A DNA stretch of 64,000 nucleotides, taken from positions 1 to 64,000 of the forward strand of contig CALMIL010000088.1 in assembly GCA_937864005.1 (NCBI GenBank). Direction: 5' to 3'. Shown here in pieces: positions 33,406-42,195 of this stretch. The notes beneath the pieces are model-generated. The model made no database searches. It was not told where the DNA came from and worked only from the letters and a program-made list of their open reading frames with translations. Each line of letters starts with the position of its first letter. Within the stretch, counting starts at the first letter, position 1. The position numbers and the translations under genes are program-made. Source of the DNA: an uncultured Burkholderiales bacterium (lineage in GTDB: Bacteria; Pseudomonadota; Gammaproteobacteria; Burkholderiales; Burkholderiaceae_C).

Positions 33406-36066
<2,661 letters not shown>

Positions 36067-36122
36067 GGCTGTTCCGTTGTGTTCCCTGCGCTGTCGCGCC
36101 TGCCTACAATCTGCCCTCACGC

Positions 36123-36152
36123 GTGCGCGCGCCTGCACGCATGCGCGCGCAC
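36123..36152. other. Inverted repeat upstream of the SET-domain gene
   Basis: GTGCGCGCG (36123-36131) and CGCGCGCAC (36144-36152) form a 9-bp inverted repeat around a 12-base loop. It follows a -10-like TACAAT at 36105-36110 and lies just before the SET-domain start. It may form a leader hairpin. The alternating purine-pyrimidine arms also resemble Z-DNA-prone sequence. Confidence 0.4.
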
Positions 36153-36183
36153 ACCCACGAATTCAATGTACCCAAAGTCGACC

Positions 36184-36720
36184 ATGACGCAAGCCGCGAT
36201 GCGAAACCACCCCGAGAACCACGCCGAGCCGCAGGCGCCGGACGGGGCAGCGCCGCAAGCCGCGTCGCACAAGGGCGGGCGCCGCATCCAGGTGCGCCGC
36301 TCGGGCGTGCACGGCAAGGGCGTCTTCGCCGTGGCGCCGATCGCCAAGGGCTCGCGCGTGATCGAATATCTCGGCGAGGTCATCAGCTGGCGCGAAGCGC
36401 TGCGCCGCCATCCGCACGATCCGAGCGACCCGAACCACACCTTCTTTTTCCACATCGACGACAAGCACGTCATCGATGCGAGCGTGCGCGGCAACGCGGC
36501 GCGCTGGATCAACCATGCGTGCACGCCCAACTGCGAGGCCGACGAGATCGACGGCCGCGTCTTCGTCAACGCACTCACCGATATCGCGCCCGGCGAGGAG
36601 CTCTTCTACGACTACGGCCTCGTCATCGACGAGCGCTATACGAAGAAGCTGAAGGCGCAGTTCGCCTGCCGCTGCGGCTCGCCGCGCTGCCGCGGCACGA
36701 TGCTCGCGCCGAAGCGATGA
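36184..36720 (+). CDS. SET-domain protein lysine methyltransferase-like protein
   Basis: 178 residues from the ATG at 36184; an ATG at 36166 is also in frame. The SET domain covers about 34-160: RRSGVHGKGVFAVAPI (SAM-binding start), SARWINHACTPNCEA-like RWINHACTPNCEA and GEELFYDYGL with the catalytic tyrosine. A post-SET cysteine cluster follows as FACRCGSPRCRGTM (CxCx4C). This is the full eukaryote-like SET/post-SET layout. Bacterial targets are poorly known; ribosomal and nucleoid proteins have been proposed. It overlaps birA by ATGA. Confidence 0.88.
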   Translation: MTQAAMRNHPENHAEPQAPDGAAPQAASHKGGRRIQVRRSGVHGKGVFAVAPIAKGSRVIEYLGEVISWREALRRHPHDPSDPNHTFFFHIDDKHVIDASVRGNAARWINHACTPNCEADEIDGRVFVNALTDIAPGEELFYDYGLVIDERYTKKLKAQFACRCGSPRCRGTMLAPKR

Positions 36721-37682
36721 CCGCGGCGCGAGGCACGGTGCCGTCCACCGGCGGCCGCTGGCATTGGGATGCACCGGCGCTCTGGGCGCAGCTCGAGCCG
36801 CGCCTGCCCGGGCTGAGCGTCGAAGTGCTGGCGCGCGCGCCGTCGACCAATACCGTGCTGCTGGAGCGGGCGCGTGTCGCGCCGCATGCGCGCGACGGCG
36901 GCTTCGGCCGCCCGCCCGAGACGAGCGAGCGCGTCGGCCGGCGCCAGGCCGACATGCAGCCCTGCCTGCTCGTCGCCGAACACCAGACAGCCGGGCGCGG
37001 CCGGCTCGGCCGGGGCTGGCGGTCGGCGCGCGGCGCATCGCTCACGTTCTCGCTCGCACTGCCCTTGGCGCCCGCCGACTGGTCCGGCCTGTCGCTCGCG
37101 GTCGGCGTCGCGCTCGCCGACGCGTTGCAACCCGAGGCCGCACCTTCGACGCCGTCGATCGCGCTGAAATGGCCGAACGATCTGTGGCTCGCGCCTCCTG
37201 CCGAACAGGGGCCGCCGGCCGACGGCAGCCTCGGGCGCAAGCTCGGCGGCATCCTGATCGAAACCCTCGCCAGAGGCAGCCAGCGGCTGGCGGTGATCGG
37301 CGTCGGGCTCAACGTGGCACCGCTGCCCGAGCCGCTGCCGATCGATCTGCACGGCCGCATGGCGTCGATCTCCGAAATCGATCCCGGCGCCGATGCACCG
37401 GCGGTGCTGGCACGCGTCGCGCTGCCGCTGGTCGAGGCGCTGCAGGCGTTCGAGCGCGATGGCTTTGCCGCGTTTGCCGAGCGCTTCGCGGCACGCGACC
37501 TGCTGCGCGGCCAGGCGGTGCGCACGACCGCCGCCGATACGCCGGAAGGCACGGCGCGCGGCGTCGACGCGCACGGTGCGCTGCTGATCGATACGGCCGA
37601 CGGGCGACACGCGATCACGAGCGGCGAAGTCAGCGTCCGGCCGGCCGGCGGCCCCGATACGATCCCTTCGCCTGCGCCATGA
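36717..37682 (+). CDS. birA: Biotin--[acetyl-CoA-carboxylase] ligase, lacking the HTH domain
   Basis: 321 residues from the ATG at 36717. The ligase motifs are APSTNTVLLERA, TAGRGRLGRGWRSARGASLT (biotinyl-AMP loop) and ALKWPNDLWLA, then GGILIETL and IGVGLNV. The C-terminal domain follows. No N-terminal winged helix is present, so it should biotinylate carboxylase carrier protein without repressing bio genes. A ~25-residue Gly/Arg-rich insert (about 57-80) precedes the ligase loop. coaX, which often follows birA in this group, is absent. A SPOR-like gene starts with ATGA overlap. Confidence 0.9.
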   Translation: MTAARGTVPSTGGRWHWDAPALWAQLEPRLPGLSVEVLARAPSTNTVLLERARVAPHARDGGFGRPPETSERVGRRQADMQPCLLVAEHQTAGRGRLGRGWRSARGASLTFSLALPLAPADWSGLSLAVGVALADALQPEAAPSTPSIALKWPNDLWLAPPAEQGPPADGSLGRKLGGILIETLARGSQRLAVIGVGLNVAPLPEPLPIDLHGRMASISEIDPGADAPAVLARVALPLVEALQAFERDGFAAFAERFAARDLLRGQAVRTTAADTPEGTARGVDAHGALLIDTADGRHAITSGEVSVRPAGGPDTIPSPAP

Positions 37683-38098
37683 AGCTGCGCGCACTGGCGC
37701 TGCTGCTGGTGCTCGCCAATCTGGGCTTCTACATCTGGTCGCAGGGATGGCTCGACGCCCTGACGGGCGCCCACGGAGCGGGCGAACCCGAGCGCATGGC
37801 GCGTCAGGTCAATCCGCAATTGCTGCGCGTCCTGCCCGGGGCGCAAGGGGTCGCGGCGATGGCGGGGTCGGCGCTGGCCGCCGCCTGCCTCGAAGCGGGC
37901 CCGTTCACCACGGCCGAGGCCGGCGCGGCGCTCGCGCAGTGGCGCGCGCGCGGGGTGCCGACCGCTCGCTTCGCGACGCGCGAGCTGCCGGGCGACGCGG
38001 CCATGCTGCGCATCGAAGACGCCGATGCGGCGCTCGCCGCACAACTGGCGCAAGGCGCCGCCCCGTTCGGCAAGGCGTTCGCGCCGTGTGCGAAATAG
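37679..38098 (+). CDS. SPOR-like domain protein with N-terminal membrane anchor
   Basis: 139 residues from the ATG at 37679, overlapping birA by ATGA. The N-terminus (MKLRALALLLVLANLGFYIW) is a single membrane anchor. The C-terminal part (CLEAGPFTTAEAGAALAQW ... LRIEDADAALAAQL) is the shape of the SPOR-type fold, with two Cys that may pair. Similar genes follow birA or coaX in other betaproteobacteria. Binding to peptidoglycan is inferred only from the fold, and the match is weak. Confidence 0.6.
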   Translation: MKLRALALLLVLANLGFYIWSQGWLDALTGAHGAGEPERMARQVNPQLLRVLPGAQGVAAMAGSALAAACLEAGPFTTAEAGAALAQWRARGVPTARFATRELPGDAAMLRIEDADAALAAQLAQGAAPFGKAFAPCAK

Positions 38099-38135: not shown

Positions 38136-39959
38136 TCAGCCGCGGCGGCGAAACGCGCGTGCCACCGCGGCGACCGAGAGCGTCAGCCCGAGCAGCCACA
38201 GCGGCCCGACCGCACCGCCGCCGCCACCGGCTGAGGCGAGCGTGCTTTCGGTGGCAGGGGGCGGCACATCGACACCGAGCGCGACGGCTTTGCTCACCTC
38301 GGCATTGGCGATCACCTCGACCGGCCAGCGCCTGGGCGTGAAGGTCGTTTGCTGCGCGATCGTCTGCGCATAGCGCACCGCCTCGGCGACGTCGAGGATG
38401 CCGGCGCCGCAGGTCTGCGTGGTGCAGATGCAGCGCCCGGGGTTGTCCGGCGAGCAGCCGCCGATCACCGGCGATGTGACGTGCGGACGCGCACTCTGGC
38501 GCAGGCCGGCGACGATCTGGGCCGGCGTCAGGCCCGGGTTCGCGCTCAGCATCAGGCTGACCGCGCCGGCGACGATCGGCGCCGAGAAGCTCGACCCGTA
38601 GACACGCACATAGCCGCCCGCCGCCGGGCCGGTGCGGCCGGCATTGCCGAGCGTGACGATGCCGTCGTCGCCGACGACCGCGCCCCACGCGCCTTCGTCG
38701 TCCGGGTCGCCGCCGACCGTCGCGACGGCCAGCCCGGCACCGAAATTCGAATAGGTTGCCTTGAAGCCGTCGCGATTCAGTGCCGCGACGCCGATCACGC
38801 CCTTGCAGTTGGCCGGACGCATCGGCGCCGCATGCTGGTTGCCGGCCGCGGCGACGACGACGACGCCGTGCTCGGCGAGTTCGTCGATCGTCGATTGGTA
38901 CGCCGGGTTGCACGCCGCGCTGCTGCCGAAGCTGATGCTGATGATGCGCGCCGGGTTCGGGTTCGCCGGCAGGAAGCCGCCGCCCGCCTTCGCGACCGCG
39001 AGCCCCGCCGCCCAGCGCATGCCGTCGATGATGTCGGCCACCTCGGCGCCGCATTTGCCGGCGACGCGCACCGGCAGCAGGCGAGCGTCCCAGCTTGTCG
39101 AAGCGATGCCTTGCGCGTTGTCCGTCGCCGCGGCGACGAGGCCGGCGATCTGCGTGCCGTGCCACGAGCTGTCCTGCACGTCGCAGCCGTCGAACAGCGC
39201 CGGGGCGGCCTGCCGATCGGCGGCGCTGACCCAGTCGCCCGGGTCGCTCGGATCGGCGTCGCGGCCGTCGCCGTCGTTCGCATATTCGATCGTCGAGACG
39301 AAGTCGTAGCCGGCCAGCACATGGCCGGCAAGATCGGGATGGCGGGTGATGCCGGTATCGAGGACGGCGACGATCGCCGCCGCACGGCCCCGCTCGAGCG
39401 CCCAGGCGCCCTCGAATCCCGGCAGGCCGCGCCGCCGCGCCGCCAGCGCGTTCGAGTTGCTGCCGCCAGGATTGGCGAGCCACCATTGCTGCGCGAAATA
39501 GGGGTCGCTCGGCGTCGCGGCCAGCAGCCGCTGCTCGCGCTCGTTGGCGACGACCCATTCGACGTCCGGATCGGCGCGCAGCTGGGCGGCGATGCGCGCC
39601 GCTTCCGCGCCGCCGAGGACGCGCCCGAAATCCAGGCGCTGCGCGGCGCGGCCGGCCGGCTGCGCGCTGTAGCCGCCGATGCCCGCATGGCCGAGCACGC
39701 GCTGCAGGCGCGAGCCTTGCGCATCGTCGGCCTTCGCGACGCCAAGGGCCTGGGCGCGCTCGTGCGCCGGCGCATCCCTCAATTTGACGATCAGGCCGTT
39801 CGCGGCGCGCGGCTCGCCCTCGGCCCGCGCCGGCCATGCGGCCAGCACGCTGCAGCCGAGGACGGCGGCGGCGATCGTGCGCCCGATGCGACGGCGCGGC
39901 GCGGCGCGCCACGCCGCACCCCTTGCCGCACCGTCTATCCTGAAATCTTGATTGCCCAA
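38136..39959 (-). CDS. Exported subtilisin-like serine protease with GlyGly-CTERM-like tail (copy 1)
   Basis: 607 residues from a TTG at 39959, chosen because GGAGG lies 6 bases upstream; no ATG or GTG is near the signal peptide (IGRTIAAAVLGCSVLAAWPARA). The S8 triad is Asp201 (VAVLDTGITRHPD), His267 (SSWHGTQIAG) and Ser457 (GSSFSAPIVAG). A propeptide-like region covers about 50-140. The C-terminus has Gly578-Gly582, a hydrophobic stretch 584-600 and RAFRRRG, the GlyGly-CTERM layout. It should be exported and probably held at the envelope until cleaved there. A second S8 gene lies upstream on the same strand. Confidence 0.88.
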   Translation of the reverse strand: MGNQDFRIDGAARGAAWRAAPRRRIGRTIAAAVLGCSVLAAWPARAEGEPRAANGLIVKLRDAPAHERAQALGVAKADDAQGSRLQRVLGHAGIGGYSAQPAGRAAQRLDFGRVLGGAEAARIAAQLRADPDVEWVVANEREQRLLAATPSDPYFAQQWWLANPGGSNSNALAARRRGLPGFEGAWALERGRAAAIVAVLDTGITRHPDLAGHVLAGYDFVSTIEYANDGDGRDADPSDPGDWVSAADRQAAPALFDGCDVQDSSWHGTQIAGLVAAATDNAQGIASTSWDARLLPVRVAGKCGAEVADIIDGMRWAAGLAVAKAGGGFLPANPNPARIISISFGSSAACNPAYQSTIDELAEHGVVVVAAAGNQHAAPMRPANCKGVIGVAALNRDGFKATYSNFGAGLAVATVGGDPDDEGAWGAVVGDDGIVTLGNAGRTGPAAGGYVRVYGSSFSAPIVAGAVSLMLSANPGLTPAQIVAGLRQSARPHVTSPVIGGCSPDNPGRCICTTQTCGAGILDVAEAVRYAQTIAQQTTFTPRRWPVEVIANAEVSKAVALGVDVPPPATESTLASAGGGGGAVGPLWLLGLTLSVAAVARAFRRRG

Positions 39960-39990
39960 CGCCGGCCTCCATCGCCCGTCTGCGCGCCCT

Positions 39991-40163
39991 GAGAGCACCC
40001 CCAAGGGCCGGGCCTTGCCCGTCCCGGCCCCCCGCGGGGGCGCAAGAAAACTTGGGGCGGCCCGGCGTTTTCTTGAGAGCACCCCCAAGGGCCGGGCCTT
40101 GCCCGTCCCGGCCCCCGCGGGGGCGCAAGAAAACCTGGGGCGGCCCGGCGTTTTCTTGAGAGC
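39991..40163. repeat. Tandem 84/83-bp intergenic repeat with three hairpins per unit
   Basis: Two head-to-tail copies, 39991-40074 (84 bp) and 40075-40157 (83 bp), followed by six bases of a third (GAGAGC, 40158-40163). The copies differ by one C in a C-run and one C/T. Each unit contains GGGCCGGG-N10-CCCGGCCC, the palindrome CCCCCGCGGGGG, and CAAGAAAAC-N15/16-GTTTTCTTG, whose T-rich arm could terminate transcription on either strand. It lies between the two subtilase genes. It looks like a dispersed extragenic palindromic element; no other copy was seen in this window. Confidence 0.9.
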
Positions 40164-40227: not shown

Positions 40228-42195
40228 TCACGCCGCAGTTTCGCGCCGCCGGGCGCGGCCGACGGCGATCACCGAGGCCAGCAGTCCGGCGAGCCAGGCC
40301 GGGCCGAGCGCGCCGCCGCCGCCGGAGGACGCCGGCCAAGCGACGGCGATGCCGTCGCTGGCGACCGCGCTCTTGCCCTGATCGTCGGTCACCGTCAGCC
40401 GCACGCCGAAGTGTCCGCTGTCGCTTGCGACGACCTCGGCCGTCTGCTGATTCGTCGCGCCGACGAAGCCCGAGACGATGCCGCCGCCGTCGGTCAGTTC
40501 CCAGCGCCAGCTTGCAATCGTGCGCCCCGGGCCGACCAGGCTGCCGGCGGCGCTCAGCGTGATCGTCTGCCCGGGCGATGGGGTGGCGGGCGAGACGCCG
40601 ATGCGCGCGACGACCGAATCGGTTGCGGCCGCCGCCTTCAGCGCCGCGCCGGCGTCGAGCATGCCGGCGCCGCAGGTGCTGGTCGTGCAATAGCACTGCA
40701 GCTGGTCGAAGTCGCCGGGCGCGGTGCAGACCGGAACGACGCTGCCGTCGCCGTTGTCGCCGCCCGTCTTCGGAAACGTCCGTGCGCTCGACTGCAGCAG
40801 GCTGCGCAGGTCGGCCGGCCGCAATGCGGGGCGCGCCGAGACCATCAGCGCCGCCGTGCCGGCGACGAGCGGCGCGGCAAAGCTCGTACCGGCGGCGTAG
40901 TTCCAGGCGTCGCTGTAGATCGAGCTGTTGGCGACCGGCGTCGTCTTGCCGGCGTTCAGCGCGGTGATGATCGGATACAGGCAGGGTTCGTCGGAGCCCA
41001 GATTCACGCAGTTGCCGGCCGGTGCGCTGATCGCGACCTGCGGGCCGAGGTCGGAATAGCCGACCTTGGTGCCGGCGTGGCGCAGCCCGCCGACCGCAAG
41101 CACGCCGGGGCAGTTGGCCGGCGTGCCGACCGCGCGCCCGGCGCTGTTGCCGGCGGCGGCGACGACGAGCACGCCGGCCGCCGTCACTTCGCCGACGACC
41201 GAGACATAGCTGCTCGAGCACCCACCGTCGCTGCCCAGGCTCATGCTGATGACGGCCGCCGGCGTCGGGTTCGCGGGCACGCCGGGAACGTCGAGCCCCG
41301 CCGCCCAGCGCATCGCGGCCTGGATGTCGGAGTCGTAGCCGCCGCACTTGCCCAGCACGCGCAGCGGCAGCACGCGCACGTTGCGGCCGATGCTGGCCAT
41401 GCCGATGCCGTTGCCGGTCGCGGCGCCGACGAGGCTCGCGGTCTGCGTGCCGTGCCAGGAGCTGTCGCTGATATCGCAGCCGTCGAAGGTGGAAGGATGG
41501 GCCGCCTTGTCGGCCGCCGAGACGTAGTCGCCGGGGTCGCTCGGGTCGGCGTCGCGGCCGTCGCCGTCGCCGGCGATGACGGGGTCGGAAATCATGTCGT
41601 AGCCGGGCAGCAGCTTGGTCTTCAGGTCGGCATGGTCGAAGCGCACGCCGGTATCGAGCACGGCGACGATCACATTCGGATTGCCGGTCGTCACCGCCCA
41701 CGCCGTCTCGGCGTCGATCGACGATTTCACGTCGCCCGCGGGCGCGCGCAGATACCACTGGCCGACGACGGGGCCCGGATCGACCGGCTGGCCGGCCGGG
41801 TAGAGCGGGTCGTTCGGCGCGCTGTAGCGATGGCGCCGGACGTCGATGACCGCCGATTCGACGTCGGCATCGGCTGCAAGCTTGCGCACGAGCTGCTCGG
41901 AGCTGATGCCGCTGGCGAGCACGACCTGGGTGCGATCCGAGACGTTGGCGCCGCCGCGCAGCGCAAGCCCGATGCGCTTGCCGAGCACGCCGGCGCGCTC
42001 GGTGCTGCGCTGCGCGGCGGTCTCTGCGCGGCTCGCAGAGCCGAGTACCTGCTGGCGCGCGATCGCCGAATCGGCCTTGAAGGTGACGATCACGCGCGCA
42101 TCGGCGGCCGGTGCCGCCATTGCCGGCGCATGAAGCGACAGCTGCGCCGCCGAGGCGATCGCGAGAGCGGCCAGGAAGGTCAGGGGCAGACGCAT
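40228..42195 (-). CDS. Exported subtilisin-like serine protease with GlyGly-CTERM-like tail (copy 2)
   Basis: 655 residues with signal peptide MRLPLTFLAALAIASAAQLS and an Ala-rich cleavage region. S8 triad: Asp181 (VAVLDTGVRFDH), His248 (SSWHGTQTASL) and Ser438 (AGTSFAAPLVAG). A PKD-like domain follows at about 532-620 (TPSPGQTITLSAAGS, WRWELTDGG, FGVRLTVTDDQG). The tail is SSGGGGALGPAWLAGLLASV then ARRR, matching copy 1. Both copies share DGDGRDADPSDPGD, so they are paralogues. It begins 87 bp after gap on the same strand. Confidence 0.9.
   Translation of the reverse strand: MRLPLTFLAALAIASAAQLSLHAPAMAAPAADARVIVTFKADSAIARQQVLGSASRAETAAQRSTERAGVLGKRIGLALRGGANVSDRTQVVLASGISSEQLVRKLAADADVESAVIDVRRHRYSAPNDPLYPAGQPVDPGPVVGQWYLRAPAGDVKSSIDAETAWAVTTGNPNVIVAVLDTGVRFDHADLKTKLLPGYDMISDPVIAGDGDGRDADPSDPGDYVSAADKAAHPSTFDGCDISDSSWHGTQTASLVGAATGNGIGMASIGRNVRVLPLRVLGKCGGYDSDIQAAMRWAAGLDVPGVPANPTPAAVISMSLGSDGGCSSSYVSVVGEVTAAGVLVVAAAGNSAGRAVGTPANCPGVLAVGGLRHAGTKVGYSDLGPQVAISAPAGNCVNLGSDEPCLYPIITALNAGKTTPVANSSIYSDAWNYAAGTSFAAPLVAGTAALMVSARPALRPADLRSLLQSSARTFPKTGGDNGDGSVVPVCTAPGDFDQLQCYCTTSTCGAGMLDAGAALKAAAATDSVVARIGVSPATPSPGQTITLSAAGSLVGPGRTIASWRWELTDGGGIVSGFVGATNQQTAEVVASDSGHFGVRLTVTDDQGKSAVASDGIAVAWPASSGGGGALGPAWLAGLLASVIAVGRARRRETAA

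What the first reader, a model, noticed from the sequence alone, without database searches (positions are those of the whole stretch)
36184..36720. Bacterial SET/post-SET methyltransferase next to topB and coupled to birA
The protein has a complete SET domain and a post-SET CxCx4C cluster. It is divergent from a topoisomerase III with a Lys/Ala-rich, histone-like tail, which makes the tail a possible substrate for methylation. This is a speculative link, but the proximity is suggestive.
Basis: inference. Interest (0 to 1): 0.5.

Follow-up and report, generated by a model that had tools for sequence, protein, structure and literature searches.

The report
Conserved bacterial SET methyltransferase beside topB
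A histone-methyltransferase-like enzyme sits beside a DNA topoisomerase gene in nearly all sampled members of one bacterial family; it probably methylates lysines on the bacterium's own proteins, but its target, including the topoisomerase tail first suggested, is unproven.

Summary
36184-36720 (+) encodes a 178-aa SET protein with the expected catalytic motifs and a CxCx4C post-SET cluster. It is divergent from topB (117 bp gap) and overlaps birA by ATGA. Its AlphaFold model matches MLL/COMPASS H3K4 methyltransferases (Z about 20, 34-41% identity, through post-SET). SET is present in 34 of 36 sampled genomes of its family; the order topB-SET-birA holds in 109 of 110 loci.

The proposed link to the TopB tail is not supported as stated. 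Basic TopB tails are as common without SET (28 of 32) as with it (28 of 29); of two family genomes lacking SET, one keeps the Lys/Ala-rich tail and one does not. The same AKK/APKK motif is carried by an H1-like HC2 protein and a SWIB protein in this genome, and in three relatives by the SET protein's own N-terminus.

Outside the family, SET lies in dnaN-gyrB-SET-topB-dprA or directly after gyrB in some genomes. Twenty of 36 family genomes carry a TopB-SWIB fusion, echoing the published chlamydial SET/SWIB/topoisomerase set.

Best reading: an endogenous protein-lysine methyltransferase, perhaps acting on H1-like tails of nucleoid proteins. The substrate is inferred, not shown.

The parts
36184..36720 (+). 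SET/post-SET protein, predicted lysine methyltransferase (178 aa)
   Evidence: PF00856 1.9e-23; family alignment; AlphaFold mean pLDDT 87.4, best PDB matches MLL1/MLL3/COMPASS Z 19-20
36313..36618 (+). SET domain proper (residues 44-145)
   Evidence: Pfam limits; residues
36667..36690 (+). post-SET CxCx4C (C162, C164, C169), presumed zinc site with C117
   Evidence: C162, C164, C169 invariant in 57 sequences; zinc role recalled from eukaryotic SET structures
33406..36066 (-). topB, DNA topoisomerase III, 886 aa
   Evidence: NF011313 1581 bits, PF01131 4.9e-113
33409..33498 (-). Lys/Ala-rich C-terminal tail of TopB (about 30 aa)
   Evidence: sequence; tail comparison
36067..36183 (.). 117-bp divergent intergenic region topB/SET
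   Evidence: no promoter-like consensus match
36717..37682 (+). birA, biotin-protein ligase, ATGA overlap with SET
   Evidence: PF03099 8.5e-14, TIGR00121 7.3e-37
37679..38098 (+). 139-aa ORF of unknown family, ATGA overlap with birA
   Evidence: no Pfam or NCBIfam hit; tblastn relatives follow birA in many of the 110 loci

Best explanation
An endogenous SAM-dependent protein-lysine methyltransferase of the MLL-like SET/post-SET type, encoded with birA and divergent from topB. SAM binds the SET core (HGxG, NHxCxPNC); a substrate lysine enters the channel closed by the post-SET zinc cluster and is methylated next to Y142/Y144 (mechanism recalled from eukaryotic SET enzymes). The most likely substrates are lysine-rich disordered AKK/APKK tails of the cell's own nucleoid and DNA-topology proteins (HC2/H1-like protein, SWIB protein, possibly TopB), tuning DNA binding or partner recruitment. 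Shown by computation: predicted fold, complete active-site motifs, conservation, synteny. Inferred: methyltransferase activity, lysine specificity, endogenous substrates, nucleoid role. My estimates: protein-lysine methyltransferase 0.85; endogenous substrate 0.75; nucleoid/topology tails as main substrates 0.4; TopB tail as the dedicated substrate 0.1-0.15.
For: Model aligns with MLL1, MLL3 and yeast COMPASS over 130-139 residues including the post-SET (Z 19.3-20.2, rmsd 1.6-2.0, 34-41% identity; profile E 9e-42 to MLL1). N110, H111, C113, E139, Y144 and the post-SET cysteines invariant in 57 sequences. Present in 34 of 36 family genomes and 48 of 200 genomes of the order. topB adjacent in 110 of 110 loci and birA in 109 of 110. 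SET and TopB distances correlate over 60 loci (Mantel r 0.42, 0 of 999 permutations). SET lies next to topB in 4 of 4 genomes of family f6, with gyrB on its other side in the 3 whose contig shows it, and directly after gyrB in 2 of 2 genomes of genus g65. SET carries an AKK/APKK N-tail in 3 of 5 genomes of family f13 (HC2 E 6e-05 for one, below its cut-off). This genome encodes an HC2 protein (9.2e-18) and a SWIB protein with AKKAPAKK tails. Within seven families that vary for close SET, SET+ genomes have more AKK motifs (p 0.008). Only 3 of 39 SET+ relatives have a type III HrcV over cut-off. Published parallel: SET, SWIB and topoisomerase-SWIB in Chlamydiae (PMC6426960, passages seen).
Against: No biochemical evidence for this protein. 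The within-family AKK excess falls to p 0.07 per Mb, and genome size differs as well (p 0.005); in a logistic model over the order AKK adds nothing (p 0.99). The SET-SWIB association (39 of 47 vs 34 of 152) vanishes within families (p 0.51); the four SET+ genomes of f32 have no SWIB. TopB tails do not track SET. G030 lacks SET but keeps tail and SWIB. The SET-domain enzyme BurB methylates free methionine (PMC12542666), so a SET fold does not prove a protein substrate. In 27 of 34 genomes read outside the family SET was not within about 10 kb of topB, though many of these assemblies are fragmented.
Confidence: 0.4

Rival explanations
1. Dedicated TopB methyltransferase: SET methylates the TopB Lys/Ala tail to control its DNA binding.
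For: Divergent neighbours in 110 of 110 loci; in family f6 adjacent in another arrangement, convergent (4 of 4); TopB tail is basic.
Against: Tails equally common and lysine-rich without SET; G030 keeps the tail without SET; f6 TopB tails are short and end Arg-rich although SET is adjacent; other proteins have longer AKK tails. For it: G028, which lacks SET, also lacks the Lys-rich tail.
Confidence: 0.12
2. Endogenous protein-lysine methyltransferase acting on a non-nucleoid protein (ribosomal protein, elongation factor, or the biotin carrier modified by the neighbour BirA).
For: Co-directional with birA in the 109 of 110 loci where birA is on the contig; an in-frame birA start lies within 30 nt of the SET stop in 77 of 106 loci (which took the nearest possible start and so favours short gaps); some bacterial lysine methylations are on translation proteins (recalled).
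Against: No birA match beside SET in any of the 34 genomes read outside the family; no sequence clue to a substrate.
Confidence: 0.3
3. Small-molecule methyltransferase like BurB (methionine to S-methylmethionine).
For: BurB is a SET enzyme of similar size, 172 aa, from Burkholderia (PMC12542666; abstract, part of results and mechanism section seen).
Against: Model and profile point first to histone methyltransferases with post-SET; the post-SET cysteines are invariant here; the genes beside SET are topB, birA and an unknown ORF. The BurB sequence could not be compared.
Confidence: 0.06
4. Secreted effector that methylates host histones, like BtSET or LegAS4.
For: Weak match to the LegAS4 model (40.6 bits, cut-off 550); reviews name BtSET of Burkholderia and a Bordetella relative as nucleolar effectors (PMC3980110 and PMC7279228, passages seen).
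Against: Near-core gene of its family (34 of 36) beside housekeeping genes; HrcV over cut-off in only 3 of 39 SET+ relatives. Other secretion routes were not tested.
Confidence: 0.06

Closest known systems
MLL/KMT2-COMPASS SET domains
   Same: SET core, NHxCxPNC, GEELxYDY, post-SET CxCx4C; Z 19-20, 34-41% identity
   Different: Free-standing 178-aa bacterial protein; the RbBP5/ASH2L partners and histone substrate of the eukaryotic enzymes are not expected in this cell (recalled, not searched)
SET domain-containing protein-lysine N-methyltransferase of Burkholderiales (product name on Paraburkholderia plasmids)
   Same: About 55-59% identity over 80-83% of the protein in the 15 records listed
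   Different: Plasmid-borne; their neighbours were not read
Chlamydial SET (NUE/cpnSET) with SWIB and topoisomerase I-SWIB
   Same: Same three ingredients: SET, stand-alone SWIB, topoisomerase-SWIB fusion (PMC6426960 passages)
   Different: Here the topoisomerase is TopB (III) and SET is physically next to it; the window's own TopB has no SWIB; common descent of the set not tested
LegAS4/RomA and BtSET effectors
   Same: SET domain; partial match to the LegAS4 model
   Different: Far under the LegAS4 cut-off, conserved housekeeping neighbourhood, 36 of 39 SET+ relatives without HrcV over cut-off; BtSET sequence not compared
BurB
   Same: Small Burkholderia SET enzyme (PMC12542666)
   Different: Methylates methionine; sequence not compared here

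Membership tests
SET domain family PF00856 | Match above Pfam gathering score over the whole domain | tested here: met
   83.3 bits vs 22.4, profile 1-105 of 105
SET protein-lysine methyltransferase with post-SET | Catalytic motifs NHxCxPN and GExxxxY plus post-SET CxCx4C (motifs recalled) | tested here: met
   aligned with MLL1
SET protein-lysine methyltransferase with post-SET | Fold like solved lysine methyltransferases including post-SET | tested here: met
   MLL1 7w67_C Z 20.2, rmsd 2.0, 139 residues aligned, model 31-174
SET protein-lysine methyltransferase with post-SET | SAM-dependent methylation of lysine on a protein | not testable with these tools
   needs enzyme assay
LegAS4/AnkI effector family NF043024 | Score above curated cut-off | tested here: not met
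   40.6 vs 550 bits
T3SS effector BtSET-type | Carriers encode a non-flagellar type III secretion system | tested here: not met
   HrcV TIGR01399 over cut-off in 3 of 39 SET+ relatives (G019, G022, G034); own genome has two fragments below cut-off at contig ends, so own absence is less certain
BurB-type methionine S-methyltransferase | Sequence/substrate pocket of BurB | tested here: inconclusive
   BurB (9L4T, 9L4V) not among the 50-60 rows shown; no BurB sequence at hand
Chlamydia-like SET/SWIB/topoisomerase set | SET, SWIB and topoisomerase-SWIB in one genome | tested here: inconclusive
   SWIB in 36 of 36 and TopB-SWIB fusion in 20 of 36 family genomes; own genome has SET and one stand-alone SWIB but no fusion

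The most novel reading that the evidence does not exclude
Burkholderiales run a chromatin-like lysine-methylation system of their own: a SET enzyme, ancestrally encoded among dnaN-gyrB-topB-dprA, writes methyl marks on H1-like AKK/APKK tails of HC2, SWIB and TopB(-SWIB) proteins to set nucleoid compaction or topology. The reported host-histone activity of relatives would then be a by-product or a later reuse.
Probability: 0.22. Interest if true: 0.8.

Novelty: new member of a known kind. Interest (0 to 1): 0.42.

Why it matters
In the reviews seen here (passages only) bacterial SET proteins appear mainly as weapons against host chromatin. A SET gene kept beside topoisomerase genes in nearly every sampled member of a family that includes Rhizobacter, Rubrivivax, Hydrogenophaga and Polaromonas (largely soil and water bacteria, recalled) suggests that the primary job is inside the bacterium. 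If its target is a nucleoid-protein tail, bacteria would have a histone-tail-like lysine mark, and the question of what bacterial SET enzymes are for becomes testable in a culturable host.

Tried and rejected
TopB tail as diagnostic partner: rejected as a correlate. Hc1 (PF07432) as partner: in only 2 of 200 genomes. SWIB as obligate partner: strong across the order, absent within families. Phage carriage: no match in 50,697 phage records. Plasmid copies: 48 of 72,556 records, all under 60% identity, not followed. Promoter scan of the gap: nothing. Literature: searches for SWIB with topoisomerase III and bacteria, and for SET domain with methyltransferase, Betaproteobacteria and nucleoid, gave 0 papers; the library is open-access PMC only, so this is weak evidence of absence. 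Other searches were seen as listings, apart from the four papers opened. Li et al. 2013 on BtSET/LegAS4 was not read; it is known here through reviews. BurB was not listed, which show 50-60 rows each.

Row choices. The 80 named loci are the best 80 of 563 confirmed relatives, and the 30 unnamed ones the best of 39 genomes, so both favour near relatives. A1 uses 57 sequences chosen mainly from the 88 left after an 80% identity cut; L039 and L007 were dropped as mis-parsed, others to keep the set small. For TopB tails I fetched 60 stretches and used 6 loci already held, out of the strong TopB matches; the test left out four weak-SET genomes and one tail near a contig end, leaving 29 and 32. The Mantel test used the first 60 loci with a complete TopB. 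Presence tables were copied by hand into; G000 was left out, so n is 199. 'Close SET' there means 37 genomes, after setting 10 weak hits aside.

Full report
What is there. The ORF at 36184-36720 (+) encodes 178 aa with a full SET domain (PF00856, 1.9e-23) and a post-SET CxCx4C. topB (33406-36066, -) is a complete topoisomerase III, divergent with 117 bp between start codons. birA overlaps the SET stop by ATGA and itself overlaps a 139-aa ORF with no Pfam or NCBIfam match.

What the protein is. In 57 aligned relatives N110, H111, C113, E139, Y144 and the three post-SET cysteines are invariant, C117 nearly so. The AlphaFold model (mean pLDDT 87.4; about the first 30 residues low) is nearest to MLL1, MLL3 and yeast COMPASS, Z 19-20 over 130-139 residues including the post-SET (Foldseek agrees); sequence profiles agree (MLL1 9e-42). 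It matches the LegAS4 effector model only at 40.6 bits against a cut-off of 550. Paraburkholderia plasmid relatives of about 55-59% identity are annotated 'SET domain-containing protein-lysine N-methyltransferase'. So it is a member of a known kind; the activity itself is inferred.

Distribution and neighbourhood. Among 60 relatives (window's genome included) 39 have it, 34 of 36 in the same family; in 200 genomes of the order, 48; in 274 genomes of the class, 70 match the profile, most of them weakly. In 110 loci (30 unnamed, 80 named) topB is the divergent neighbour in 110 and birA follows in 109, the exception being a contig end. An in-frame birA start lies within 30 nt of the SET stop in 77 of 106 loci, 24 with the ATGA overlap; the script took the nearest start, which favours short gaps. 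In the two family genomes without SET, topB and birA face each other directly, as a clean loss would leave them.

Outside the family I read the neighbours in 34 genomes. In family f6, SET is convergent to topB in 4 of 4, with dprA beyond topB in all 4 and dnaN-gyrB upstream of SET in the 3 whose contig reaches that far. In genus g65 (small genomes of f32), SET follows gyrB directly in 2 of 2, with dprA-topB near the other end of the same contig. topB lies within about 10 kb in 3 more genomes. No birA match lies beside SET in any of the 34. The simplest account is an ancestral dnaN-gyrB-SET-topB-dprA stretch, from which the window's family kept topB-SET and gained birA. SET is on opposite sides of topB in the two families, so this needs at least one rearrangement, and two separate associations are not excluded. 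No dprA, gyrB or dnaN match was found in the 69 named family loci of 6 kb or more. The proximity is real but does not show a functional pair.

Testing the TopB tail. Tails were compared in 61 genomes outside the family: basic tails in 28 of 29 with a close SET and 28 of 32 without; lysine share 0.78 vs 0.85, AK/PK density 0.090 vs 0.081, length 60 vs 33.5, none significantly different. In f6, where SET is adjacent, tails are short and end Arg-rich. G030 lacks SET yet keeps linker and SWIB; G028 lacks SET and has a short Arg-rich tail. The tail is thus a general feature of these TopB proteins, not a mark of SET.

Other candidates. A search of the window's genome for an AAKK-x3-KK pattern found ten sites in three places and none with the pattern reversed: an HC2/H1-like protein (PF07382, 9.2e-18) beside what looks by eye like a ribonucleotide reductase small-subunit gene, a SWIB protein with the same N-tail (PF02201, 2.3e-27), and a MazG/PIN7 protein. 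TopB was not among them. In family f13 the SET protein itself carries such a tail in 3 of 5 genomes (HC2 match below cut-off in one, none in another). SWIB is in 36 of 36 family genomes and fused to the end of TopB in 20. Chlamydiae have the same set with topoisomerase I, for which a chromatin-modifying complex was proposed (PMC6426960, passages seen); reports on methylation of chlamydial Hc1 conflict (same passages; PMC3980110 passages).

Co-occurrence, told both ways. SWIB is in 39 of 47 SET+ and 34 of 152 SET- genomes (Fisher 8e-14); for close SET it survives genome size in a logistic model (p 0.0006), while AKK counts add nothing there (p 0.99). Within the seven families that vary, SWIB shows no link (p 0.51), AKK counts do (p 0.008), genome size does too (p 0.005), and AKK per Mb is borderline (p 0.07). 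So the nucleoid-tail reading is plausible, not established.

Not an effector in the main. Non-flagellar HrcV passes its cut-off in 5 of 60 relatives, and in 3 of the 39 with SET. The core is under purifying selection (dN/dS 0.12-0.41) and its distances follow those of TopB (Mantel r 0.42). Whether BtSET is an ortholog could not be tested; I only suspect it from its origin in Burkholderia.

Verdict. Real, conserved, correctly described; an endogenous protein-lysine methyltransferase is the best reading. The TopB-tail link is one possibility among several and gained no support. The wider pattern, SET with topoisomerase genes, SWIB fusions and H1-like tails, is the part worth an experiment.

Noticed in passing
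L228, L121, L227 (G095, G047, G139): SET proteins with a Lys-rich AKK/APKK H1-like N-terminal extension of roughly 60-90 aa in family f13.
   Followed up: partly
G000 C214:7635-7868 (L196): 131-aa AKKAPAKK-repeat HC2/H1-like protein next to a probable ribonucleotide reductase small-subunit gene (identified by eye) in the window's genome.
   Followed up: partly
e.g. L036, L086: TopB with a C-terminal SWIB domain in 20 of 36 family genomes; no paper found on SWIB with topoisomerase III.
   Followed up: partly
G000 C173 (L195:694-2019): MazG-like plus PIN7 protein with an AKK-rich stretch.
   Followed up: no
window 38136-40046 and 40228-42195 (-): Two adjacent subtilase genes (PF00082), the second with a PKD domain, convergent to the birA operon.
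   Followed up: no
further hits in G001, G002, G009, G011, G015, G017, G032: A second, divergent SET protein (31-43% identity) in several family genomes, at other places.
   Followed up: no
Paraburkholderia and Caballeronia plasmids carry SET relatives, 7 places in one record.
   Followed up: no
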